Source: Thysanoteuthis rhombus
Taxonomy: Eukaryota; Mollusca; Cephalopoda; Oegopsida; Thysanoteuthidae
Direction: 5' to 3'
Assembly (NCBI GenBank): GCA_963457665.1
Contig: OY735207.1
Coordinates: 56,193,779 to 56,257,778 of the forward strand
DNA: 64,000 bases
Each line of letters begins with the position of its first letter. The first letter of the stretch is position 1. Positions 2,817-62,153 of the stretch are shown piece by piece. Made by a program: the position numbers and the translations under genes. The notes below the pieces were generated by a model. That model was given only the letters and a program-made list of their open reading frames with translations. It did no database searches and was not told where the DNA came from.

Positions 2817-2881
<65 letters not shown>

Positions 2882-2952
2882 TTGTGTTTATGCATATATG
2901 TACATATATGTGTGTATGTAAGTGTGTATGTGTGGATGTGTGTGTGTGCGTA
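2740..2952. repeat. (TA)n-(GT)n compound microsatellite
   Basis: About 110 bp of mostly TA dinucleotides with scattered GTA interruptions is followed by a GT-rich tract. The long Tyr-Ile open frames on both strands are translations of this array and not genes. Confidence 0.97.
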
Positions 2953-3082
2953 TGGTTACAAAACAATTTTTCACTGTTACATGTTCAATTTAAAACGACG
3001 GGCAAGGAATGCTTTTCTAACTCTTTAGTTAATTTTCTTGTTTACGTACATTTGAACATACCCACACACAGACACTCACTGA

Positions 3083-3085
<3 letters not shown>

Positions 3086-3132
<47 letters not shown>

Positions 3133-3152
3133 TGTGTGTGTATGTGTGTGTA
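3086..3152. repeat. (TA)n-(GT)n compound microsatellite
   Basis: Uninterrupted TA dinucleotides pass into GTGTGTAT units, the same compound order as the array at 2740. Confidence 0.96.
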
Positions 3153-3224
3153 CAGACAATATGACGATTTGGATGAGGAAAGACTTGATTTGATGTACTA
3201 ATCAGCTTCACATCTTTTTTCCAC

Positions 3225-3560
3225 ATCATATATATATATATATATATCAAAGTCCGTCCGTCTGTAACGCTTTGTAGGCCATATTCTAGCACGTAGGGAG
3301 CTGAAATTTTGCATAGTGTTACGTCTCTTCACTGCAGAGGATATGGGACGTCGGAGTTTCCAAAGATTGTTCAGGGTAATTCAATTTGAAGGAGAATTCA
3401 AATTTAAATTAGACCCCGACTTTCCCATCCCGGAAGTGTTGACATCGGGTGCTTCTCTTCAACTGACTGACCTCCGGCTCAGATTTGAGAGTATCGAACA
3501 TCACACTGCCAATCGAAGTTATTTTAAACAAAAAGTAATAAAGATTTAAAAGTATCAGAT
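3225..3560. other. Possible unnamed repeat beginning with GTCCGTCCGTC
   Basis: A 23 bp TA array leads into 'agtccgtccgtctgtaacg' and then 'gctgaaattttgcatagtg'. The plus-strand open frame here (3316-3549) has no domain I know. The abrupt junction at a TA array hints at an inserted repeat, but I saw no second copy in the window, so this is weak. Confidence 0.3.
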
Positions 3561-13395: not shown

Positions 13396-14080
13396 TAATG
13401 TGTTATTAAGGAATGGATTCATGATCCAGCAGAATGATTATGAATTGCGTTGTATTTTAATGACACCTCAATTTTAAATGATCTCCCGTTATTACACGGT
13501 GAACGTATCACTAGCCTAGACAACGAAAATAGAATAAACAATTGACCGTGTAATAACGGCATCTGAGTTCAAATAAGTGTTCCAATATGATATAACGTAA
13601 TTTATAATCATTCTGTCGGATCATAAATCCATTTCTTAATAACATTATTGCCGGCGTTGAAAAAACAAAAGCAACAGAACAAACAAACTAACAGAGCAGA
13701 TATAGACCGATAATAGACAAAAAAAAAAAAAAAGAATCTGGAGTGAAAACAGTTAATTGGGCCTCTGCACTACCGGCGGCTGTTTATCTCAATGGTTAGA
13801 GCAACGCTATCGATCACAGGCTCCATTCCTGCAGTAGCCCCATAGTCTTCAATAATTCATTCTATTTATGTTGTTTAGGCCAAGAAGACAGGTGAAGACA
13901 GTTAATTGGGCCTTTGCACTACCGGCGGCTGTTTATCTCAATGGTTAGAGCAACGGTATTGGTCACAGGCTCGATTCCTGCTGCAGGCCATAGTCTTCAA
14001 TAGTTCATGCTGTTTAGGCCAAGTAATACATTCACAGCGTAATAACGGGAGATCATATCAGGTTACACAATTCATAATCA
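13396..14080 (+). mobile_element. tRNA-bearing palindromic repeat unit, locus A, with two tRNA-like copies
   Basis: Two structures are joined. First, an inverted repeat: 13396-13500 is similar to the reverse complement of 13544-13645, sharing 'ttattacacggt', 'attcataatcattctg' and 'ggatcat-aatcca'. Second, a direct duplication of about 150 bp (13743-13891 and 13892-14030), each copy with a tRNA-like segment (about 13775-13842 and 13923-13990). These have an A-box-like 'tatctcaatggttagagc'; the second keeps a good B box, 'ggctcgattcctg'. The right end repeats the arm word 'taataacgggagatcat'. The same unit recurs at 47.5, 51.4 and 61.5 kb. Confidence 0.75.
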
Positions 14081-20200: not shown

Positions 20201-20844
20201 GCTTATTACGCAACAGCGATCGGGGAGAAACAGTAAGGCCAAGTAAACGTAGCTTCTCTGGCACAATGGTGACGATGTCAGGTTTTGGCCACATTTATGA
20301 TTTTTGTTTCTACTTGGTGAGCCTGCATGAGCGTTTCTAAACCGTATGTATTGCCAAGAACTGATAGCTCGGCTGGTAATTCAAGCTCAATGAATTCTCC
20401 TGGCCACACAACTGTGTTTCAAGGAAGTGCACGTAATACTTGAGCTCTTCTGGTACGGTGAGGATCGCTCAATCGTGTGGGAGAACCACATTGATATACA
20501 TTGGTCCCCTTGAGTAACTCTGATCGTTTAGATGGATGGAGTCGGACATCATTAACCTTCATGAAAGGTGTTCCCGCTTGCATATTGACGTCAAAGTTTT
20601 CTTCTACCAGTCCATCAAACTTCTTCGTAATGTTGAGCGAAGTATGTTGAACGTTGTTTCCCTGATTACAGTCTAAGAGAAAGAGCCATCTGCTCGATGA
20701 GAAAATTAGGAAAGTTTTGTGATTTTCACGCCGAAAAGTTTTGCCAAATGAAAGCAAATCATGTTAACGACTGCTCCACTGCCTACAATAATAGGTACTG
20801 TTTGGTGATCAACAAACATGTCAAGGTACCTCCAATGTGCATGA

Positions 20845-21864
20845 GGGCTATCACTCAACAAGGTGTACACCCTGTACACGTCAAAATACTGCAACATATA
20901 TGCAATCACTGCAACTCCTTTATCAAGCTACTTAAAGACTCTGAACCCACCCAATTCCAAAAAGGAGTGAAACAAGGCGATACCAGCTCACCCAAACTCT
21001 TCACAGCCTGCCTCGAGATGATCTTCCGTAACCTGGACTGGGAAAATAGAGGAATCATAATAGTCAGCGAATAACTGAGCAGCCTCAGATTTGCAGATGA
21101 CATCGTCCTTTTTGCAGAGTACATATACGACCTTCCACTAATGCTAGAAGTAAGTAAAAGAATCGGCTTACACATGGACTTCAGTAAAACAAAAGTCATT
21201 TGCAACAATCACATCGAGAATAATGACATAACAGTCAAAATCGAAGGCACAAAACTGCAGAAAGTGGACTACTACATCTACTTAGGACAACGAATCTCTA
21301 TGAAATCCACAACAGAAGAAGAAATAAAGCGGAGAATCACTCTAGGATGGCAAGCTTTCGGCATAACAAGCTCAACCTTAAAAAAGAAAACGACCCCAAA
21401 AATCCTAAAAAGACAAATAAACAACCAATGCATCCTCCCGACAGTCCCTTATGGAGCTGAAACATGGAACATAGCCAAGAGAAGGACCTACAAACTGAGA
21501 AGCATACAACGCACACACGAGAGAATCATGCCCAACCTCACATGGAGAGATCACAGGACAGCACAGTATATCAGAAAGAAAACGGGGTCGAAGAAATCAT
21601 AGAACTTATTAAAAAACTCAAATGGCAATGGGCTGGTCATGTTGCAAGAATGAAAGACAACTGATGGACATCATGTCTCACAACATAGAGTCCACATGCT
21701 AAACCGAGGCCGACAAAATACACGATTGGAGAGATGAACTAGACAAATTCAGAAAATATTGGCTCTGCGACGCCCATGATCGAGAAACGTGGCGGATCCT
21801 GGCGAAGGTTGATGTCAAACGACGGACGTTAAAAGATTGATGATGATGATGATGATGATGATGA
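20845..21864 (+). mobile_element. RTE-clade LINE, 5'-truncated, nested in the gypsy fossil
   Basis: Encodes the second half of an RTE-type reverse transcriptase on the plus strand: 'QQGVHPVHVKIL' near 20860, 'FQKGVKQGDTSSPKLFTACL' (RT motif region) near 20955-21015, the catalytic 'LRFADDIVLFAE' near 21088-21120, then 'YLGQRISMKSTTEEEIKRRI' and the tail 'LTWRDHRTAQYIRKKTG' near 21535-21590. A stop lies just before the FADD block and the frame shifts near 21600, after which the tail 'KKLKWQWAGHVARMKDN' continues in another frame. It ends in a (GAT)8-like tract at 21838-21864. The first half of the LINE, including the endonuclease, is absent. Confidence 0.88.
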
Positions 21865-25023: not shown

Positions 25024-25140
25024 GTCTTACGGCACCAGGTATTCCTATTCGGTCACTGCCCAGTACTGACCAGACTTAACGTTGCTTAACTTTGGTGGCT
25101 GCTTGAGAACCGATCCATTCAACATGATTTGGCAGTAAGC
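25024..25140 (-). pseudogene. 5S ribosomal RNA-like sequence
   Basis: Read on the minus strand, 117 bases follow the 5S rRNA layout from end to end. They show a 'catgttgaatggatcggttc' segment, the conserved 'aaagttaagcaacgtt' segment of the internal promoter zone, 'ctggtcagtactgggcagtg', and an end like 'aatacctggtgccgtaag'. Length is close to the usual 120 bases. Differences from typical animal 5S sequence are spread along it, including in the 5' stem, and it sits alone among transposon fragments. It is either a dispersed 5S pseudogene or the head of a 5S-derived (SINE3-type) element. A working gene cannot be excluded by eye but seems unlikely. Confidence 0.85.
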
Positions 25141-43194: not shown

Positions 43195-45034
43195 TAATGT
43201 TTTGCACCATTATGAACACCTTCTTCCAAAAAAAAAAAAAAAAAAGAAAAAATGGATAAGTCCCGTCCACAAAACCAAGAACGAAATAGACTATATCCTA
43301 ACGGACAAAAGCAACACCGTCAAAGACATTCAAGTCCTTTATCAAGTCTACGTAGGAAGCGACCAGAGGATGGTGAGGTGTAAAGTGCAAATAAACACCA
43401 ACGCAGAAAAATGTTACTCACCAAACTGCAACCACTAGACTACGAGAAGAGCTCACTCAATCCCTCAAACTTAAACTGAAAAACAGATATAAAATTATTA
43501 CCGGACAAGCGGAGATCAACATCAACGAACTTAAAACGAAAAACGAAACAACAGCCTCTTTGATTGGAGTCGCCATTATTTCAAACCAAGGATGACACAA
43601 ACCATTAGTAAAATGTCAGATGAAACCAGGAAAGAGCAGACGCCTCAGCCTGTTGATGAACCCAAGAGAGAAAATTGAAGAGATCAGACTGAATAAAACA
43701 ATAAAAAAGTAGGAAAGGGTAGACAACAATAATAGAAACAGCTTTCAAAAAAGGCTGGGGCTCTAAAGCTATAAACAAGGCTCTTTTTACAAGAAGGAGA
43801 CGAATAACTAGCATACTCGAGGATGTGAAAGACCTAACAACAGGTAGAGGCAGGATTGCCGATGGTGCCCAAGAATTCAACCAAAAACTTTACTCCTCTA
43901 GACAAGGACTACAAAACAACGAACTGGATACGCAAGTCGCAAGCGATCAGTCTGGAGATTTCTCAAAAGTTCAACCATGGGAGTTGAAGCAAGTCATCAC
44001 AAATAAAAAAAAAAAAAGGAAGGCCCCCGGACCAAATAAGATCACCATCACCCTATTAAAAAAACGGTAAGACAACTAGGGAACTAGCTATTCTTTTCAA
44101 CTTATGCCTAAAACAATGTCTCAGAAAATTGGAACATGGCAATCAATACTTTTATACGATGAACAAACCCGAAAGACCTCAACAAGAACAGACCTATAAG
44201 CTCATCTTCAAAAACGTAAACTGTGAAAATAAAAGAACCAAAATAGACGGCAAATATTGGAGTAGCCTCAGATTTAAAGACAACATCGTTCTTTTCGTCG
44301 AGAGCCTGCACAACCTCCAATTAATGATAGATTAATTAAAGAAAGCAAAGTCGGCTCTCACATGAACTTCAGCTAAACAAAAGTCATGAGCCCAATCACG
44401 TCGGTAATAAAAACAATGCGATCAAAATCGAAGACATAGAACTGGAGAAAGTAGACCACTATACTACCTAGTACAACGAATCACCATGAAACCCTCCAAA
44501 GAAGGAAAAATCAAGCAAAACAATCACTGTAGGATGACAAGCCTTCGGTGGAGCAAGCTCAACCTTCAAAAACAAAAAGATCCCATCAGTCCTAAACAGA
44601 AAGATTTACAACCAATGCATCCTCCCGATAGTCAGCTATAAAGCTGAAACATGGGACTTGATCAAATCGCACACTGAGAAGCATGCAACGTACTCATAAA
44701 AGAATTATGCTTAACCTCACATGGAGAAATCGCAGGACAGTACAATACACCAAGGAGAAAACTGGAGCCCAAGACATCATATATTCCATCAGAAAAATGG
44801 TAAACGGAAAGTCATTTTGCAAGAATATCAGACAACCGATGGACATCACGACTCACAACATGGATCCCCAGAGATCACATGCGCAACCGAACCCGGCAGA
44901 ATAGTAGATGGAGAGACGAACTAGACGAATTTGGAAAGTATTGGCACCGCGACGCCCATGATAAAGATGTTGCAAATCCTATAGAATTTCTATGTTCAAT
45001 GACGAACGTCAAAAGATTGATGATGATGAGATAG
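43195..45034 (+). mobile_element. RTE-clade LINE, longest copy in the window, with internal deletion
   Basis: Includes the end of an APE-type endonuclease: 'KNEIDYILTDKSNTVKDIQV' then 'VGSDQRMVRCKVQIN' near 43270-43400, the conserved SDHR box read here as SDQR. A 'GRGRIADGAQEFNQKLYS' linker follows near 43840-43895, then 'KRKAPGPNKITITLLKK' near 44015-44065. A deletion removes the central RT blocks, and the copy resumes at 'LRFKDNIVLFVESLHNLQLM' near 44265-44325, where the FADD catalytic block has become FKDN. The tail 'MLNLTWRNRRTVQYTKEKTG' lies at 44707-44767 and the end is a short GATGATGA at 45018-45029. Many stops and frame changes; a dead copy. Confidence 0.86.
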
Positions 45035-47529
45035 AATGTAAGAAACTCCAAGTTAGGAAATCTCTTCACAAAAGATCAAAATTATAGAGACCCAAAGTGT
45101 TCAAATTATTGCAAATGTTTACATGAGATTAGAAAAAGCGTTGAATATTTTCATTTTATCTACGTCAAATAAATATCGAATAATAGAATTAGCGTTCGAC
45201 AGATGGAGAAAGTACTTGAAATGCTCGAACATCCCCTAGACACGAGTCCGGTGCTAAAGAAATTCTCAAGTATTAACAGATCTCTTACGCTCCAATAAGT
45301 TTGTTATAGGCCTGATTGATAAAGCGGCAAATAATATAATATTTACATGTAAAAAAGATGATATTCAAAAGATATTGAGTACAGTAGGTCTGATAGGAAT
45401 ATCATCATCCATGTATAAAGTGTCTACTTTCAAACCAAAATGTATTATGTTAAAAAACAACGTATTAAGACTTGAAACAGATGCAAAATGAAGAATTTAG
45501 CAATTATGCATTGGAGACCTATATGCATTAAAATCCAATTGGTGATCACTTTTTTGTAGCCTCTTGAGTATGTCACGCTAAACCTCTTAGCAAAGCTATT
45601 TCCAAAGTTTTTGATTTAATATAAAATCAAATACGGAAATTTCACAAAAGTAAATTCTATAATAATTTAAATATATTTTGTTTAGTAAATAATTTCACGC
45701 CTGTTAAAAAATGGATTTAATAAATAATCGTAAGGAGGCTAAACCTATCTCAACCTACGATTTTAGGATTTTTTATGCAAAAATTCCTCTTGAATATCCA
45801 ATCAAACAATCCAATAAAACAGGAGGAAGTAGTAAATATAATGGAATTGCATACCGTGAATGTTTCAGGTGTAAAACAAAAAAGGCGAGCCGTACGTTAC
45901 GTGCTGTACTTTTAAGGCGATTGTTGGGGAATTCGGGAATATTTCTTTGGAAAAGGTTATAAAATATTTCATCGAATCATAGGTGTTCCTATGGGAGTTT
46001 ATCCTGCATCCTAATGAGCAAATTTGCATTTACATAGGCATGAATATAGATTCATGTCATCTTTAATAAAAACTAATATAAAGCGAGCTGGTTTATTTTT
46101 AGTTCGTACCCGTTTTATTGATGACTTATGTTCTCTTAATGCTGGGGGTGAATTCGGAAAATCGAATAGTAATATATTCCCTAGGGATTTCAATTAAAGT
46201 GTAAACATTGGGGAATATAAAGAATTTTCCTAGATTTGGACATTGAAATCAAGGATTGAATGTTCGTTTATAAATTGTTTGATAAACGAGACTCATTTCT
46301 GTTCCATATCGTCCTATTCTATTCTTTATATTTTACGGAACTATATTATTAAAATATTTGATAATAGCCAGAGCTACTCTTAGATTTATTGATTTCATGC
46401 TAAAAAGATTTTTAGTTGTTGAAATGGTCGATAAAAGGTGTCGAAATTAGTAAGATTTTTAGACAATCCATGAATAGACATTTTGATCTCTTTAAACTTA
46501 TCAGCTTGATCATAATGAAATAATAACTAAAATTACAGAATATGTTAACGAGAATATAGAGATAGAATAAATGAATAATGTAAATTGAAATAAATTTGTA
46601 TTTACGTTGAGGGGAATCGGCTAACCAAAAGAGATGGACCCAATCTGTAAGTTCATTGTACTGACTGGAACCAAAAGAAAAAGGGAACGTTTTGTTCCGG
46701 TCTATTTATCCGTCTTATAGGTGGTAGGGCGGGTAGGGAGATAGAACGTGGAATTCCAAGTAATAAATGGTATAAGTATATTAATGAAATCGCCCATTGT
46801 AGTGTTATTACCCGCTAGAAAGTGATTTGGTTTCGTTTTGATCATGTGTATAAGGATACTCTATTTGATGATTCAAAGGAGAAAACTAAATGATGGGAGC
46901 AAGATTCTATACGACGTGGAATAAATAAATCTGAAGTTGGTGGGAAAATATCAAATTCTCTTGTTGAATGTGTTTGTAGAGAATCAACGCTCGGAAGTTT
47001 TTCAGTCTAATCATTTTTATTTTAGATAAGTTAGTTTCCATGAATTCTGAGATCAAAACCGACAAAACGGATTTAATATTCACATGGGTGAACTATCAAT
47101 AGAAGTGGCAGAAACAATGAATCACGTCTGTTGATATATTCACCAATCTTTCATTGTTGGATACGATTTTGGGTAACCAACGTAAGTCCAGTTTCAAAAA
47201 ATCAAATATTTGGTATAAAAACATCCATACACAATACATTATGATAATATCGTATATAAAATAACAAACAACAAATAGTATGACAAAAGTTATACATCAA
47301 AGTTATAGCTGAAGGGGATGATGTTTGATCAATACTACTGGGATGCCATGTTACTATAACTGTTTTATTTTTAAAATACCTGAAACGGTTACATGGTAAA
47401 CAACTGATGATCCAAACAAGAGAAAAATTACACGTAATACCATAATGATTAGGTGTATGTTGAATACAAAAAGATAACACAGGAGAAAATTACATGAATT
47501 ACGTTAACAAATATTGGGAAATGAGTTAT
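45035..47529 (+). mobile_element. Penelope-like retroelement, copy 1 (family P1), broken
   Basis: The middle of this copy encodes recognisable Penelope-like reverse transcriptase wording. A 'GVPMG'-type block lies near 45985-46000, a 'RFIDDLCSLNAGGEFG' catalytic block near 46112-46160, an FLDLDIEI-like block near 46230-46250 and an LYDKRDSF-like block near 46280. A C-terminal 'RFLDNP' zone follows near 46455-46475. The same sequence occurs in the opposite orientation at 51690-53945, and its last 300 bp recur at 61085-61400. Its left edge meets the RTE tail at about 45030; its right edge meets a tRNA-bearing unit. Many breaks are present and it is an old, dead copy. I read it as Penelope-like and not LINE because of the RFIDD plus YDKRD combination. 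Confidence 0.75.
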
Positions 47530-47957
47530 ATAGAAACTCTTATTTGAAATGATCTCCCGCCATTACACGGTTAATGTATCGCTTAGCGTTGACAACGAAA
47601 ATATGATATAACCTAATTTATGATAATTCTGTCGGATCATATATCCATTTCCTAATACATAACCATCGCATTGACATGAACGAACAAAAAAGATATAGAC
47701 CGAGAATAAACGAGATGAGAATTTGAAGTGGAATCAGTTATTTGGAGCTTTGCATTACCGGCAGCTGTTTAGCTAAATGGTAAAGGCAACAGTATGTTGA
47801 AACAGCTACCCTATCGGTTGCGAGTTTGATTTGTGCATCAACTCCTATTTTCTTTAACTTTATTCTACTTACGTTGTCTATATCAAGTGATGTATTGACC
47901 GTGTAATAACGGGAGAACATTTCAATAAAGAGGTTTTATATATTATCACGCAATTCA
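47530..47957 (+). mobile_element. tRNA-bearing palindromic repeat unit, locus B, joined to Penelope-like copy 1
   Basis: The left part (47530-47600) is the unit end in inverted orientation ('gaaatgatctcccgccatta'). It switches to the plus unit at about 47602, with 'aattctgtcggatcatata', a tRNA-like core at about 47760-47838 ('tttagctaaatggtaaaggc' and 'ggttgcgagtttgatttgtg'), and the plus end 'gaccgtgtaataacgggaga' at 47897-47916. It follows the 3' end of Penelope-like copy 1 directly. Confidence 0.75.
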
Positions 47958-47958
47958 C

Positions 47959-47961
47959 ACT

Positions 47962-48049
<88 letters not shown>
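47959..48049. repeat. (CA)n-(TA)n compound microsatellite
   Basis: CA units to about 47989 then about 60 bp of TA units. Confidence 0.96.
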
Positions 48050-48050
<1 letters not shown>

Positions 48051-48387
48051 CTTTAGCAAAACATCTTTGATGTTTATCCTGTTTGTACTGTCATTATGCG
48101 GAAAGGTCCATTGATTATGGGGAAATACCAACTGGAATATGTAAAAGAATAGGTGAAAGCTCAGAAAGACTAAATTGGTGTTAGGGTTAGCCTTCCAATG
48201 CACTGAAAAGAATAAACTACTATTAATAGACACAGAGAATAGCTTTTGGCAGTCAAAAGGTGGGAAAATATGATGTGCTTTTTTGAACGGATCAGATGAC
48301 CAACGACCCGGGTAATCCTCAAAGGAGTAGAAGATTAGATGTATCAAGACCTGAGGATGATTGTAAAAGATGAAGTATGGTGCCATA
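48050..48387. other. Spacer, nothing recognised
   Basis: No coding or recurrent repeat motif. A single 'ggtgttagggttagcc' near 48178 is too short to interpret. Confidence 0.5.
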
Positions 48388-48990
48388 TCATCATCATCAT
48401 CATCATCATCATCATTCTTCTCCAAGATCTCTCTATCGTGGGCGTCTTGGAGCCAGGACTTCCTGAACTTGTCTTGTTCGTCACTCGTCTTATATTCTGC
48501 CGGCCACATTTCTGCTTATGATCTTCCGTGAATCAGAATCTGACAAACTTTCTTCATGAACAGCCCATTGCCATTCAATTTTTCTAATGGATTCCATAAT
48601 ATCCCTCAGTCGTGTTTTTCTTTTTCAATATGCTGCGCTATTCTATGATCTCAGCATTTGATGTTGAGCATGATTATATCCTGTGCACGTTGAATGGTTC
48701 TCAGTTTGAGGATCAATCTTTTGGTTAGGTTTCACATTTCAGTTCCACATGTGACATTGTTTGTATACACTTATTTTTAGGACGAATGATATTTTCTTGC
48801 TCTTGAAGGCTGAGCTTACTCTACGGAAAACTTTCCATCCTAAAGTGATTCTTTGATTGATTCAATCTTATTTTGAGAGTTTCATTGAAATTTGCTGTCC
48901 TAAGTAGAAGTAGAGGTCTACTTTCTTCAGTTCTGCGTTTTCAATTCTAATCGTCGTGTCATTGTTCTTGCCTTGTTTACCTTACATGAC
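48388..48990 (-). mobile_element. RTE-clade LINE 3' portion with ATC-repeat tail
   Basis: An (ATC)9 tail at 48388-48414 is followed by the reverse complement of the RTE end. A small deletion lies within the TWIPRD region near 48540. Further upstream in the element's sense, the block equivalent to 'KKVDYYIYLGQRISMK' is encoded near 48870-48935 and an ITLGWK-like block near 48835. Frame breaks are frequent. Confidence 0.83.
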
Positions 48991-49784
48991 ATTTGATTCA
49001 TTGAAATCCCCGTGAAGACAAATCACTGCATCAAAAAGACATATTTGTAAAATAGTTGCAAGAATGGGGATGTTGATCGGACGCCATATGTTGACAATAA
49101 CGTCTTAAGACTGGTCTCGATTCCTTATCCCAGGGAGTGGTGACCAAATACTGTTGGAGGTTATCTGGTCGCTGGTGTTGTTGAGAAATGTTGCAAGAGA
49201 TTTTTGAAGGGACTGGTTTCATTTCTTCTATTTCGTTTATCCTTACGTCACTGAAAAGGCTAGATGTGTATTCATTCTCAAATTGATGAAAACAAGGTCA
49301 GCAGATATTTTATCTTTTTGATTTTATTCGACTTCGTTTGATATCGACTCTCGGAGGACTGTATTCCGAGTTCAAGGAACGTGAGAATTGTTTTCTGAAC
49401 CTGTCAGTCAAATTTCTCGGTAGTTTTGTGGGTTAACACACCTTTCGTTTTTCTTCTTTCTCTACCGTTGCACTTCATCTCTCCTGTTTTCTTTCTGTTC
49501 CTCTTGTCTCTTTTAGAACTGGGTTGCATTCGTTATCAATCAAGGGAATCACAGTTATCCTTTTTTTTTAGTTTCTGGTTTCTACATTTCTTGTCATAAT
49601 CCGTCGCTGCTAAGATAAGACTTTGAATGATGGACTCACCATTGTTGCCCCTAGGTTGAACATTTCCTGGATCTATCCATTGAATGCCCCACCCTCAACG
49701 ACGAGAGTGGGCAATTAGTCAAAGCAACCTTGTTGGCACCCCAGGGCAATTATACTGCTATCTTAAAATCCAATATCTATTCAA
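48991..49784. other. Spacer, nothing recognised
   Basis: A minus-strand frame at 49031-49222 has no domain. Nothing recurrent. Confidence 0.45.
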
Positions 49785-50165
49785 TCCTCCTCAAACTGAG
49801 AGCTGTGCAACGTATGCATGAGAGAATCATGCTGAACCTCACATGGAGAGATCGCAAGACAACACATTATGTCAAGAAAAAAAACATCGGTCCGAGACAT
49901 CATAGAATCCATTAAAAAAAACTCAAATGGCAATTGGCTGGTCATGATGCAAGAATGGCTGACAACTGATGAACATCGCAACTCACAGCATTGATCTCCA
50001 GAGATCATATGCTTCACCCATTCCGGCTAAATACAAAATGGAAGGACGGAGTAGACAAAATTCAGGAATTATTGCCTCTGCGACGCCCATAATTGAAAGG
50101 TGTGGCAAATCCTAGAGAATTTCTATGTCCAACGAAGGACAATAAAAAAAAACTGATGATGATGA
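49785..50165 (+). mobile_element. RTE-clade LINE 3' end
   Basis: 'ctcaaactgagagctgtgc' is followed by a segment encoding 'MLNLTWRDRKTTHYVKKK' near 49828-49882, then 'caatggcaattggctggtc' and 'ctatgtccaacgaaggaca'. It ends at a short 'ctgatgatgatgaa'. The 5' part is missing, and one frame change separates the TWRDR and QLAGH segments. Confidence 0.83.
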
Positions 50166-50939
50166 ATTGTAAATCACGTTGTATCCTAATTGTATCAGTA
50201 TGAAACAGCCAATCAACTGATTCTTTCTGTATTTCCCAATCCCAAACACCTTGAAATTCCTTACAATTATTTTACCATTTGTAGTTTCGTATTCAACAAT
50301 GACAATTCTAAATTAGCTATTTTGATTCTAGCTAGATAATAATCATTTATATGCTGTCTTTCTTTTACAGACTCTCCAATAAAACAAAACCCTGATGGCG
50401 AAATTCCAGCTTCTAAACTGTCCAAATAGTGTAATGTAACATTTTTGTAATAAATCATTTTATACTTCATTTACAGACCCATATATCAATAAAATCAGTT
50501 CAGCAAACTCAAAAATGGTGTTCAATTTTGAAATAAACTAGTTTGATAGTTTTTCATGAAGTATTTTTTATAGTAATATAGTTTTAAAAAGAAAATGACC
50601 TCTCTGAGATATTTACGAAGAATAGCTTATGATTATGAATTTATCAATTTTTATATATATCTGAATTGTATGCAAACATTCTTATAAGAAAACAAAAGCT
50701 ACCGAACTGACAAAAAATTCTTAAACAACATTTGATAGAAACACAAAAATGTAAATTTTAGAACTCCAAAGAACTATCTTCCAAATATTTCTAGCTATTT
50801 GGCATCGATTCGGCCTGTCATCGACTTGACGTCTGGTTATCCTGACATCGACTCAGCCACATCGATCCGACCGCTTCGAGGTGGCTGCATCGAATCGTTG
50901 CCAACCCTTCTGTGCAAACTTCTCAAAGTACAAGAAAAG
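50166..50939. other. AT-rich spacer, nothing recognised
   Basis: No motif; a minus-strand frame at 50267-50470 has no domain. Confidence 0.5.
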
Positions 50940-51075
50940 GCGATGAATCTAGTAGTCTAGAGGTTGAGATCGTGGTTAACGAGAGCCCGAGGTCGGAACT
51001 CTTCCGCAGGTGAAGACTATTCTAGCCTTAGTTGGACCAGTCAGGCGAAGCTGACAGGCTGAGGGGCGGAATATT
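50940..51075 (+). mobile_element. Possible tRNA-derived SINE
   Basis: A less AT-rich block has an A-box-like 'tagtctagaggttgagatcg' and a B-box-like 'cgaggtcggaactcttccgc' at tRNA-like spacing. A G-rich body 'gcgaagctgacaggctgagg' follows. No second copy in the window, so the call is tentative. Confidence 0.4.
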
Positions 51076-51131
51076 AGTGACCTGAGATACCTGCTGAAGA
51101 TGCGGAACGAATCACAACAATGCACCACTCC

Positions 51132-51135
<4 letters not shown>

Positions 51136-51194
<59 letters not shown>
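51136..51194. repeat. (TA)n microsatellite
   Basis: About 59 bp of uninterrupted TA units. Confidence 0.97.
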
Positions 51195-51197
<3 letters not shown>

Positions 51198-51350
51198 AAC
51201 TTACGAATGTATTTTGATATGTGTTTCTAGATATAATCATGCCTATTGATGTATCAATCTCAGTCTGTCCATTTCTATCTATGTATCTAACTGGAGCCAA
51301 CAATTGGTGGATGTTTCAGCCCAGATTGAAATCAGGATTTTAGAAAATAT

Positions 51351-51683
51351 CATTCTGTCGGATCATATATCCATTTCTTAAAAATACGATTGCCTGCGTT
51401 GAAAGAAACAAATCGAAAAAATATAGACTGTGAGAAAAACAAAAACGAGAATTTGTAGTTGAAACAGTTATTTGGGCCTTTGCATTACTGGTGACTGTTT
51501 AACTCTAAGGTAAGAGCAACGCTACTTCGAAGCTGCTACCTTATTCCCGTTCCTGTCACAGTCTTACTCTTTAACTGTTCATTCGATTTACATTGTCTAG
51601 GTCAAATGATACATTCACCGTGTGATAGCAGTAGGTCATTTCAAATAAAGTTTCAATATAATATAATGCAATTCATAGTGATA
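51351..51683 (+). mobile_element. tRNA-bearing repeat unit, locus C, joined to Penelope-like copy 2
   Basis: One plus-oriented unit from 'cattctgtcggatcatata' to 'caatataatataatgcaatt'. The tRNA-like core is at about 51489-51565, with 'tttaactctaaggtaagagc' as the A-box-like part and a worn B box. The end word is 'caccgtgtgatagcagtagg', a decayed form of the arm sequence. Relative to the minus-strand Penelope-like copy on its right, it lies at that element's 3' end in antisense, the same relation as locus B to copy 1. Confidence 0.75.
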
Positions 51684-51689
51684 TATATT

Positions 51690-53945
51690 AGTTCAGAAAA
51701 TTTTGCAGCTCTAAGCACATTAGGAAAATTTTCTTTTTTTTTGTCACTTCAGTCATTTATTTCCAAATATCTGTCAATGTAATTTATGTAATGTTCTTCA
51801 GTGTATTTTTTTAATGATTTACGCGTACTTACTTATTATTGGACTATGTGTAATTTTTCTTTTGGTGAGATAACCAGTTATTTACCATGTAACCGTTTCA
51901 GGAATTTTAAAAACAATACACTTATATTAACATGGCACCCTAGCAGTGTTGATCAAAAACCTTCCTTTCAGCTATAATTTTGATATTTAGCTTCTGTCAC
52001 ACAACATGCAGTTGACGATTTAATACAGTGAATTATCATGATACATTGTTTATAGATGTTATTCCATTCTAATCATCATTTATTTAAACAAGGCTTATTC
52101 ATGCAAGTTACGCAAAATACGTAATAAATAATGAGGGATCAGTAAGTCTAGCAAAAGATGTAACTCGGTGTTCGCGTCAATCCTATTGAGTGTTCACCCA
52201 TGTGAATATTAAACCTGTTGTGTTGGTTTTAATCCTAGACTACATGCAAACCAACTTATGATACCATCTTTAGGAAAAGTGATTTGACACAAAAACCTCT
52301 TCACGTTGATTCTCTACCAACATATTTAACCGAGGATTTTTTTCCAATTTACCTTATAGTCAATTATCCCAAGTCGTAAACCATCTTGCTTTCATCAATT
52401 TTTTTTCTTTGAAATTTCAGATACATTATCCTTAAATACATTGTTGAAACGAAACCAAACCACTTGTAACAGGTAGTAACACCTCAATGGGCTACTTCAT
52501 TAATATGCTTGGACAATTTGTTACTTGGCATTCAATGTTCGCACTTTCACACTGACACGGACTGGGTCTATCTCTTATGGTTAGCTAATTCCCCTTACAT
52601 CGTTACAATTATACATTATTTATTCTATGTTTATACTCTTGTTATCATATTCTTTGATTTTCGTTATTATTTCCCAATGGATAAGCTGATAAGTTTCAAA
52701 GAGATCAAGATGTCTATTCATGGCTTTATTAAAATGTCTAAAAATCTTTCTAATTTCGCCACCTCGACTGACCATTCTTACGACTAAAGAAATAATTTTC
52801 CGTATGAAATCAATAAATTCAAGAGTAACTCGAGTTATTCTTAAGTATTTCAATATTATGATTCTGTAAGATGTATTAGATATATTGCTTATTGTTCTAA
52901 ATGGCATAAGCACTACAGGGAATGGAAATGAATATTTTTTTTTCAAACAATTTTTTGACAAACATTTCATTATCGATTTTAATGTCCAAATCTTGGATTA
53001 TTGCTTGCATTTAGTTATATTTACACTTTATATCTTATACTTAAAAAAAATCTCATTAAGAGAACATGAGTCGTCAAAACGGTTACAACTTGAAAATAAA
53101 CTAGCGCACTTTATATTAGTTCTAATTAAAGACGACATAAATATGTATTTATGCCGATGCGGATACAAATTTGTCCAGTTGGGCGCTGGATCAATACTCA
53201 TCTGGCTGCATGATCTGATGAAATATTTAGTTATTTATTTCAAAGTTGCGATCCCCATTGATGAAGAATTTACTTTTATCATGTAATTTCTATATTTGAT
53301 TGTATATTGAATTAAAAAAACAACAACTTTAGAACAGCTTTGCTAAGAGGTTCAATGCTAAAAACTCTAAAGGCAACAAAAAAGCGAGCATCAATCGAAT
53401 TTTTATGCATTTTAGGTATCAAATGCAAAATTGGTAACTTTTGTATTTGTTCATCTATTCTCAGTCCCAACTTTTTAATAATAAGATGTTATTAGATGTA
53501 TTATTATCTGGTTCACAAGTACATGCTTTATACGTAGGTGATGGTGTTCCTATAAAACCTACTTCGGACAATATCCTTCGAATATAATATTCTTCTCATA
53601 GAAATGCTATAATATTTGCCATTTTATTGATCGGGGCTATTACAAATTCATTTTAAGATCAGCTTATGTTTGAAAATTTTTAAGTGACTGATTCATTCTT
53701 TGGGTTTTTTAAAAGTATTTCACCCGTTCGTCCTTTTCATTTGCAAATCCGGGTACTTACTCTTCCGATCCATTGAACGCTAATTCTTTTACTCGATACT
53801 CATTTGACAGAGAAAACAAAAAATATTTAATACTTTTTTAAAATCTCATGTAAGCATCTGCAATTTAATTTAAAAACTCTGTTTGCTATAGTTTGGCCTC
53901 TTTGTGAAGAGTTTTCTCATTTTAGATCTTTTTTTACGATCACTA
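51690..53945 (-). mobile_element. Penelope-like retroelement, copy 2 (family P1), broken
   Basis: Inverted relative of 45035-47529, with matching blocks all along. The 3' untranslated part near 51850-52140 matches 47210-47430. The RT C-terminal part is the best open stretch, with 'KYLRITRVTLEFIDFIR' and 'MVSRGGEIRKIFRHFNKAMN' encoded near 52690-52860. The 5' part near 53770-53930 matches 45060-45220 ('gaacgctaattctttta' is the reverse of the 'agaattagcgttcg' there). It has many breaks and is an old, dead copy. It points towards copy 1, so the two lie tail to tail about 4.2 kb apart. Confidence 0.75.
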
Positions 53946-61084: not shown

Positions 61085-61400
61085 AAACTCATTTCTGCGT
61101 TTCATGTTTTATATAGAATTTGATATCATATGTGAATTTTTCGAGTTAGGATCATTGGTTGTTCGCCGTGTAACCGTTTTAAAAACAAAACAGTCAAATT
61201 GTCATGGCTCCCCGCCAATGTTAATCAAACCCCAATGCCTTCCAAAAAAGGATTCTAATTTATTAATTATCTCATATTAGATGTAGTTGATTATCTTATA
61301 TTTGGTATTATCATAATGTACGAGGATGTTATTTCATACTAAACATTATTCAAATTTTCGGAATGCATGGCTTATTCACATACGTAACCCAAAAACATAT
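61085..61400 (-). mobile_element. Penelope-like family P1, 3' fragment
   Basis: Matches the 3' part of copy 2 in the same orientation: 'ccgtgtaaccgttttaaaaa' versus 'ccatgtaaccgtttcaggaa', 'catggctccccgccaatgtt' versus 'catggcaccctagcagtgtt', and 'atggcttattcacatacgta' versus 'aaggcttattcatgcaagtt'. Only the non-coding 3' end is present. Confidence 0.7.
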
Positions 61401-61403
61401 CCG

Positions 61404-61407
<4 letters not shown>

Positions 61408-61464
<57 letters not shown>
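61408..61464. repeat. (TA)n microsatellite
   Basis: About 57 bp of TA units between the P1 fragment and the tRNA-bearing unit. Confidence 0.97.
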
Positions 61465-61469
<5 letters not shown>

Positions 61470-61476
61470 TATTTGA

Positions 61477-62066
61477 TGATCTCCCATCGTTACACGTTTA
61501 ATATATTAATCGCCTTGGACAATATGAATAGAATAAGCAATTAAAGAAAATGGGGCTGCAGCAGGGATCGAACCTGCCATCGATAAGGTAGCTGCATCAA
61601 CGTAGTGATACTCTTACCATTGAAGTAAAAAGCAGCTGGTAATGCAAAGGCCCAGATAACTGTTTTCAAGCTAAATGGTACGAGCATCGCTACGTTGAAA
61701 CGGTAACCCTATTGGTGGCAGGTTTGGTTCCTGTTACGTATAATGACGGGGTATCATCTCAAATAAATTATTATATAATATAACACAATTCATAAGTCAA
61801 TCTGTCGGACCAAATATGTCCTTTTCTCATTATATAACTGTCACATTGAAAGAATCGATTAAATCGAGAATAAGTGGCCACCCTATCAGTGACAGGTTTG
61901 AATTGTATGGCAGTCCCATTTTCTTTGATTGTTTACTCTCATTATGTTGTCTTAGGCGAGTGATATAGTAATCGAGTAACGACGGGAGATCATCTCAAAT
62001 AAGTTTCTATATAATATAACACAATTTATAATTCATTCTGTTGGAGCAAATATGTCTATTTCTTAA
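61477..62066. mobile_element. tRNA-bearing palindromic repeat unit, locus D, three partial units
   Basis: A minus-oriented unit comes first (61477-61655), with a tRNA-like core read on the minus strand at about 61555-61640, its B box visible on the plus strand as 'gggatcgaacctgcc'. A plus-oriented unit follows head-on, with its tRNA-like core at about 61666-61738 ('aagctaaatggtacgagc', 'ggcaggtttggttcctg'). A second plus unit (61790-62066) keeps only the 3' half of the core near 61890-61925 and ends with 'gagtaacgacgggagatcat'. The head-to-head pair makes a large hairpin. Confidence 0.75.

Positions 62067-62153
<87 letters not shown>

What the first reader, a model, noticed from the sequence alone, without database searches (positions are those of the whole stretch)
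47530..51683. tRNA-bearing unit sits at the 3' end of both Penelope-like copies in the same relation
At 47.53 kb and at 51.68 kb the same short tRNA-containing repeat starts where the Penelope-like sequence stops, and in both cases it is antisense to that element. Because the two elements face opposite ways, the match cannot come from simple extension of one copy. Either the unit is a terminal part of this Penelope-like family, or it uses that 3' end as a target or is mobilised by it. Penelope-like elements are known to have unusual terminal repeats in direct or inverted arrangement; a tRNA-like core inside them would be unusual as far as I know.
Basis: partly seen in the sequence, partly recalled or inferred. 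Interest (0 to 1): 0.78.

Follow-up and report, generated by a model that had tools for sequence, protein, structure and literature searches.

The report
tRNA-carrying short retroelement beside Penelope copies
The repeat next to the two Penelope-like elements looks not like a part of them but like an abundant, independent 342-base mobile repeat that carries an old tRNA; both kinds of element tend to end at TA-repeats, and the repeat's insertions look as if a Penelope-type enzyme had made them.

Summary
The adjacency is real but not a fixed relation. P1 (45038-47522, +) and P2 (53937 to about 51689, -) are decayed Penelope-like (PLE) copies. Unit B abuts P1, which lacks the last 70-80 nt of its family's 3' end; unit C stands about 11 nt from P2's true end, across a (TA) tract. 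The tRNA core is sense to P1, antisense to P2. P3 has no unit at its 3' end; unit A has no PLE beside it. In the 2.73-Gb source genome 3 of 38 fetched P1-family 3' ends have a unit within about 500 nt, and 31 of 39 further unit copies show no P1-family DNA within about 3 kb. The unit is thus not a PLE terminal part; both families' 3' ends favour (TA)n, which best explains the meeting. The unit is a 342-nt repeat with an internal tRNA (up to 50.5 bits). Copies are tandem (26/39), carry inverted arms on the 5' side (15/39), and end at the unit boundary or about 40 nt beyond (17/39), like the optional tail that a paper calls unique to PLEs. I propose a SINE-like element mobilised by a PLE-type enzyme. 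No hammerhead, target duplication or partner was established.

The parts
45038..47522 (+). P1: decayed Penelope-like RT copy, lacking the last 70-80 nt of the family's 3' end
   Evidence: tblastn and profile matches to PLE-type RTs; 3' end compared with genomic copies
51689..53937 (-). P2: decayed Penelope-like RT copy; its own 3' terminal region is about 51689-51757
   Evidence: the last base was read by eye
61121..61408 (-). P3: 5'-truncated fragment of the same PLE family, without a unit at its 3' end
47523..47603 (-). unit B, inverted arm (unit nt about 323-243), fused to P1
47601..47959 (+). unit B, end of a preceding tail plus a full monomer; tRNA core near 47763-47845
51347..51677 (+). 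unit C, one monomer from tandem boundary to tandem boundary; tRNA core near 51495-51575
51678..51688 (.). short (TA) tract between the 3' end of unit C and the 3' end of P2
   Evidence: sequence
13398..13545 (-). unit A, inverted arm with about 47 nt of extension into the next head
13541..14080 (+). unit A, direct copy with an internal duplication of the tRNA-containing part (A1/A2 91.6% identical over 131 columns)
   Evidence: tRNA 13778-13840, 22.0 bits, below the gathering score
61458..61669 (-). unit D, inverted arm including the tRNA core
61664..62067 (+). unit D, tandem direct copies ending about 40 nt into the next head, then (AT)n
47956..48048 (.). (CA)n(TA)n tract at the 3' end of unit B
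61407..61465 (.). (AT)n tract between P3 and unit D

Best explanation
The unit is an independent, high-copy, non-autonomous retroelement of 342 nt with a tRNA-derived segment at about nt 143-226. It works like a Penelope-type element. An RNA longer than one unit (a tandem transcript or a circle) is reverse-transcribed from one of two internal start sites about 40 nt apart, primed from breaks in TA-rich DNA; both strands of the break can prime, which leaves an inverted, truncated arm on the 5' side of a head-to-tail direct copy. The P1 family also ends at its own hairpin, often followed by dinucleotide repeats, so the two families meet at shared (TA)n tracts, often with 3' ends facing. Shown: the anatomy, the end classes, the (TA)n bias and the lack of a fixed junction, in the copies examined. 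Inferred: that a PLE enzyme does the work, that the template is multimeric or circular, and that (TA)n is the target rather than a product.
For: 39 best genome copies other than C: 26 tandem; 15 with an inverted arm on the 5' side and 0 on the 3' side within 120 nt. 3' ends: 17 of 39 extend into the next head, stopping at nt 35-48 in 15 of 17; of the other 22, 21 stop at nt 339-342. Outer ends of 12 scored arms: 9 at nt 335 or beyond, 5 of these with an extension, which stops at 40, 40, 41, 53 and 66. (TA)6+ within 80 nt of the unit 3' end 15/39, of the 5' end 4/39, control 41/1560; after the 3' hairpin of the 29 P1-family copies (of 38) that show it 16/29, control 104/760. [quoted passage not shown] it cuts AT-rich DNA and extends both strands. 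[quoted passage not shown]
Against: No hammerhead motif found in the unit, although PMC6155905 (passage) says all available PLE sequences have one. No target duplication above control (1 of 39 at 8 nt or more, itself a TA repeat; control mean 1.87). None of the 120 P1-type proteins used matches within about 3 kb of the 39 copies. No similarity of the unit to P1/P2 beyond shuffles, except one weak case (rc tail against the P1 3' end, 19 of 500 shuffles as good, not seen with P2). 24 of 39 copies have no inverted arm and 13 of 39 no tandem. No covariation in the tRNA stems or the head hairpin. The 39 copies were chosen by similarity to C and are old.
Confidence: 0.62

Rival explanations
1. The unit is an ordinary LINE-mobilised tRNA SINE; tandems, inversions and end classes arise from template jumping, LINE twin priming and decay, and adjacency to PLEs is mere abundance.
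For: A tRNA-derived segment, short and high-copy (5149 first-look candidates, of which 40 were scored). Chance could give 3 of 38 neighbours: expected 0.56-1.19, P 0.02-0.12, by the density assumed.
Against: The tRNA starts at nt 143, not at the 5' end, and in B, D and the D arm (not A or C) is followed by TTTT. Outer ends of inverted arms reach nt 335 or beyond in 9 of 12. Two end sites about 40 nt apart. No tail shared with the two RTE-like LINE tails tested.
Confidence: 0.2
2. The unit is the pseudo-LTR (pLTR) of an autonomous PLE other than the P1 family, and most copies are solo pLTRs.
For: Tandem, 5'-side inverted and tail architecture as described for pLTRs. In L028 a coding fragment that resembles a Penelope/Poseidon RT by eye (2481-2873) is joined in the same orientation to a partial and a full unit copy, then (TA)n.
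Against: The L028 fragment matched no Pfam family above cut-off, found no relative and did not beat shuffles against the P1-type profile. No hammerhead found. The searches for more copies of it did not complete.
Confidence: 0.13
3. The unit is a terminal part of the P1/P2 family, as the reader first proposed.
For: Both P1 and P2 have it; 0 of 200,000 random placements gave three units that close to PLE edges.
Against: The family has its own 3' end (hairpin motif in 29 of 38 fetched copies); 35 of 38 have no unit within about 500 nt; the junctions differ.
Confidence: 0.03

Closest known systems
Penelope-like element pseudo-LTRs and solo pLTRs (Adineta vaga, Anolis PAc; PMC3846280, PMC11167929)
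   Same: Head-to-tail copies, inverted partial copy on the 5' side, optional 30-40 nt 3' tail, AT-rich sites.
   Different: The unit carries a tRNA, showed no hammerhead and no target duplications, and the copies examined lie mostly without P1-type PLE sequence.
Schistosome Sm-alpha / Sj-alpha SINE-like elements
   Same: SINE-like, tRNA-related (2,342 of 2,368 S. mansoni tRNA-Gln-TTG genes were classed as SINEs, similar to Sm-alpha; PMC2770079 passage); called satellite DNA (PMC6155905 passage).
   Different: They encode hammerhead ribozymes; none was found here. Sequence homology was not tested.
Metazoan non-LTR retrozymes (PMC7229834)
   Same: Repeats of about 300 bp, from dimers upward, low GC (passages).
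   Different: Defined by type I hammerheads and circular RNAs; no tRNA segment was mentioned in the passages seen.
tRNA-derived SINEs (general features recalled)
   Same: Short, abundant, tRNA-derived part.
   Different: Internal tRNA position, no tail shared with the elements tested, PLE-like ends.

Membership tests
Penelope-like element (P1, P2) | Reverse transcriptase related to telomerase RT | tested here: met
   Model of relative P0001 (mean pLDDT 69.5, pTM 0.55): the 8 PDB matches with E <= 0.001 are all telomerases, though TM-scores are low (0.24-0.30 by query); P1/P2 match this protein group
Penelope-like element (P1, P2) | GIY-YIG endonuclease domain (absent from some PLEs, PMC3846280 passage) | tested here: inconclusive
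   Pfam on four relatives: RVT_1 in 3, below its cut-off, and no GIY-YIG in any; P1/P2 begin inside the protein, near residue 138 of P0001
PLE-type terminal repeat (unit) | Optional 30-40 nt 3' tail from two start sites | tested here: met
   17 of 39 with extension, ends nt 35-48 in 15 of 17
PLE-type terminal repeat (unit) | Tandem copies with an inverted copy on the 5' side | tested here: met
   26/39 tandem, 15/39 inverted on the 5' side, 0/39 on the 3' side within 120 nt
PLE-type terminal repeat (unit) | Joined to a PLE ORF | tested here: not met
   P1-type protein within about 3 kb in 0 of 39; P1-family DNA in 8 of 39; L028 is an unverified exception; other PLE clades not tested
PLE-type terminal repeat (unit) | Hammerhead ribozyme motif | tested here: not met
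   Rfam scans and core regex on the window copies; a minimal PLE hammerhead may escape these
PLE-type terminal repeat (unit) | Target site duplication of about 8-10 bp | tested here: not met
   1 of 39 with 8 nt or more, control mean 1.87; old copies next to microsatellites
tRNA-derived SINE | tRNA-related region | tested here: met
   50.5 bits in L020, 31.5 in L013; above the gathering score in 2 of 6 loci scanned
tRNA-derived SINE | tRNA region at the 5' end as internal pol III promoter of the whole element | tested here: not met
   tRNA starts at consensus nt 143 of 342
tRNA-derived SINE | 3' end shared with a partner LINE | tested here: inconclusive
   No similarity to two RTE-like tails; other LINEs not tested
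Retrozyme / Sm-alpha | Hammerhead ribozyme in a tandem repeat | tested here: not met
MITE / TIR DNA transposon | Terminal inverted repeats in every complete copy | tested here: not met
   Unit C and 24 of 39 genome copies show no inverted arm

The most novel reading that the evidence does not exclude
A tRNA-bearing SINE-like family that is mobilised by a Penelope-type reverse transcriptase instead of a LINE, copied from a tandem or circular RNA and inserted into (TA)n tracts by priming from both strands.
Probability: 0.5. Interest if true: 0.76.

Novelty: new variant of a known kind. Interest (0 to 1): 0.57.

Why it matters
SINEs are normally assigned to LINE enzymes (general knowledge). A high-copy tRNA-bearing family with the tail signature that a paper calls unique to Penelope-like elements (PMC11167929) would mean that PLEs drive their own SINE-like parasites. 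It would also give very many natural insertion products for studying PLE start sites, target choice and both-strand priming. It shows, too, how a shared landing site can mimic a terminal repeat.

Tried and rejected
Hammerhead in the unit: Rfam at E <= 5 on 45-55 kb and on loci A and D, gathering scans of the window and of six of the 39 genome loci, and a core regex with one mismatch on the four window loci: none. ARAGORN: nothing in the raw window; relaxed settings call tRNAs everywhere (77 in the window at 75%), so single-copy calls were discarded; the 9-segment consensus gives a call at 95% with 0 of 200 shuffles, but at the default threshold neither that consensus nor the 41-sequence one gives any. 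N-terminal PLE motifs in the P1/P2 3' region: not significant. Covariation in tRNA stems or the head hairpin: none. Target duplications: none above control. IMG/VR scans for two unit words and for the RT: nothing confirmed. PDB by sequence: nothing. A schistosome origin was considered first and dropped; the 2.73-Gb genome, its SINEs and PLEs recall an octopus, but no call names the species.

Papers: PMC3846280, PMC11167929, PMC7229834, PMC6155905, PMC2770079, PMC13282606 and PMC8967140 were seen as found passages only; all others only in search listings. I saw no report of a tRNA in a PLE repeat or of a PLE-driven SINE; the searches behind that were made, in an open-licence library that lacks most subscription journals.

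Rows dropped or at the edge: L042 scored above threshold but did not start at the junction and was not counted as extended. In one search two inverted hits further downstream (L010, about 340 nt; L027, about 190 nt) fell outside the 120-nt limit. Of its 26 tandems, L028's leading piece stops at nt 281, not at the boundary. In one search only 12 arms passed its own filter, against 15 loci. In one search nine of 38 PLE ends without the hairpin motif were left out of the (TA)n count. Of the 38 PLE ends, two hits (L079, L085) stop about 75 nt before the query's end. L016 (318 nt), L036 and P3 (5' side) are not in the count of 7 close pairs.
Full report
WHAT IS THERE. P1 (45038-47522, +) and P2 (-, 53937 to about 51689) are decayed copies of one reverse-transcriptase element, 72.7% identical over 2,070 aligned columns. 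Their protein belongs to a group with 193 database relatives at E <= 0.001 (the query was a composite of both copies). The predicted structure of relative P0001 (mean pLDDT 69.5) has eight PDB hits at E <= 0.001, all telomerase RTs, with low TM-scores, as expected for Penelope-like elements. P3 (61408-61121, -) is a fragment of the same family. The unit occurs at four loci in the window: A 13398-14080, B 47523-47959, C 51347-51677, D 61458-62067.

THE REPORTED RELATION. The tRNA core of both B and C lies on the + strand, so it is sense to P1 and antisense to P2. What touches P1 is an inverted arm of about 80 nt that belongs to unit B. The junctions are not equivalent. To find the family's true 3' end I fetched about 500 nt downstream of 38 genomic P1-family copies, that is the 40 scored places without the window itself and without one that already lay in L042. 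They mostly run 70-80 nt past the equivalent of P1's last base to a small hairpin (motif in 29 of 38) and then often a dinucleotide repeat. P2 has this end, so most of the 80 nt that seemed to separate P2 from unit C is P2 itself, and C begins about 11 nt further on across a (TA) tract. P1 has lost this end.

A unit lies within about 500 nt downstream in 5 of 42 P1-family ends examined: P1, P2 and 3 of the 38 fetched (L050 at +156, L063 at +118, L073 at +13); P3 and the second copy in L042 have none. From the other side, the 39 best genome copies of unit C other than itself (of 5149 first-look candidates, 40 scored) were fetched with about 3 kb on each side. P1-family DNA lies within that distance in 8 of 39, and none of the 120 P1-type proteins used matches in any of the 39. 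With a unit density of one per 34 kb (6 further loci in 205 kb), 0.56 neighbours were expected among the 38 (P of 3 or more 0.019); with the window's own density of one per 16 kb, 1.19 (P 0.12). Enrichment is weak at best.

WHY THEY STILL MEET. (TA)6 or longer stands within 80 nt of the unit's 3' end in 15 of 39, of its 5' end in 4 of 39, and in 41 of 1,560 control windows; it follows the P1-family hairpin in 16 of the 29 copies that show it, against 104 of 760 controls. Both families thus tend to end on the same kind of tract. The close pairs mostly face each other 3' to 3' across or beside such a tract: P2-C, L011, L033, L050, L063 and the arm of B at P1; L073 is the exception. In L050 the facing unit has itself lost its 3' end. 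Whether the tract is a target or grew from the element's end is not shown.

WHAT THE UNIT IS. The consensus of 41 monomers (39 genome copies plus B and C) is 342 nt. The tRNA begins at nt 143. Rfam scores it at 50.5 bits in L020 and 31.5 in L013; the other 4 of 6 loci scanned stayed below the gathering score, as did the window copies. In B, D and the D arm it is followed by TTTT, in A and C not. The copies are old: B-C 71%, P1-P2 73%. B and C are no closer to each other than to A1.

HOW IT INSERTS. Of 39 loci, 26 are head-to-tail multimers, 25 of them joined at the same boundary (L028 differs); 15 have an inverted partial copy, in these on the 5' side, and none has one on the 3' side within the 120-nt limit used. 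The 3' end falls at one of two places: 17 of 39 run into the next head and stop at nt 35-48 in 15 of these; of the other 22, 21 stop at nt 339-342. Nine of 12 scored inverted arms end at nt 335 or beyond, and 5 of those 9 show an extension, stopping at nt 40, 40, 41, 53 and 66. So both priming events of an insertion seem to use the same sites. In LINE twin priming, as I recall it, the second site is an arbitrary internal one. [quoted passage not shown] Rotifer PLEs have inverted pLTRs at the 5' end, an optional 31-bp tail and solo pLTRs (PMC3846280, passages). The unit therefore works like a PLE product.

LIMITS. Membership is not claimed. No hammerhead was found, no target duplication, no convincing shared end with P1 or P2 and no verified partner. 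L028, where a coding fragment that looks to me like a Penelope/Poseidon RT is joined in the same orientation to a partial and a full unit copy and then (TA)n, could be the partner or a template-switch product. Its identity rests on my eye alone: Pfam, the protein search and the P1-type profile did not support it, and the genome searches for more copies did not complete. Two further P1-family copies had no unit in the stretch fetched upstream: L086 (about 1.5 kb before its PLE start) and L087 (partly withheld).

VERDICT. The unit behind it is more interesting than the coincidence: a tRNA-bearing short retroelement with the end signature of Penelope-like elements.

Noticed in passing
window 45038 and 53937; L086 about 1472: P1 and P2 start at the same base, near residue 138 of relative P0001, and a third copy (L086) starts there too. 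P1-family copies may share a fixed 5' limit rather than random truncations; L087 does not reach that far.
   Followed up: partly
L028 2481-2873 with 2872-3330: A coding fragment resembling a Penelope/Poseidon RT by eye is joined in the same orientation to a partial and a full unit copy, then (TA)n; its identity is unverified.
   Followed up: partly
window 25024-25140, - strand: A full-length 5S rRNA match of 46.7 bits, divergent; possibly a 5S-derived SINE or a pseudogene.
   Followed up: no
window 44670-45029, 49792-50170, 20637-21602: Remnants that look by eye like LINE reverse transcriptases, two of them with GAT-rich 3' ends; one ends directly at P1's 5' end.
   Followed up: no
window 13770-14010: Internal duplication of the tRNA-containing half of unit A, 91.6% identical, much younger than the unit itself.
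   Followed up: partly
P1-family 3' ends L053, L060, L066, L033: Some P1-family copies end on (CA)n or (TC)n instead of (TA)n, as if dinucleotide repeats in general were the landing site.
   Followed up: partly
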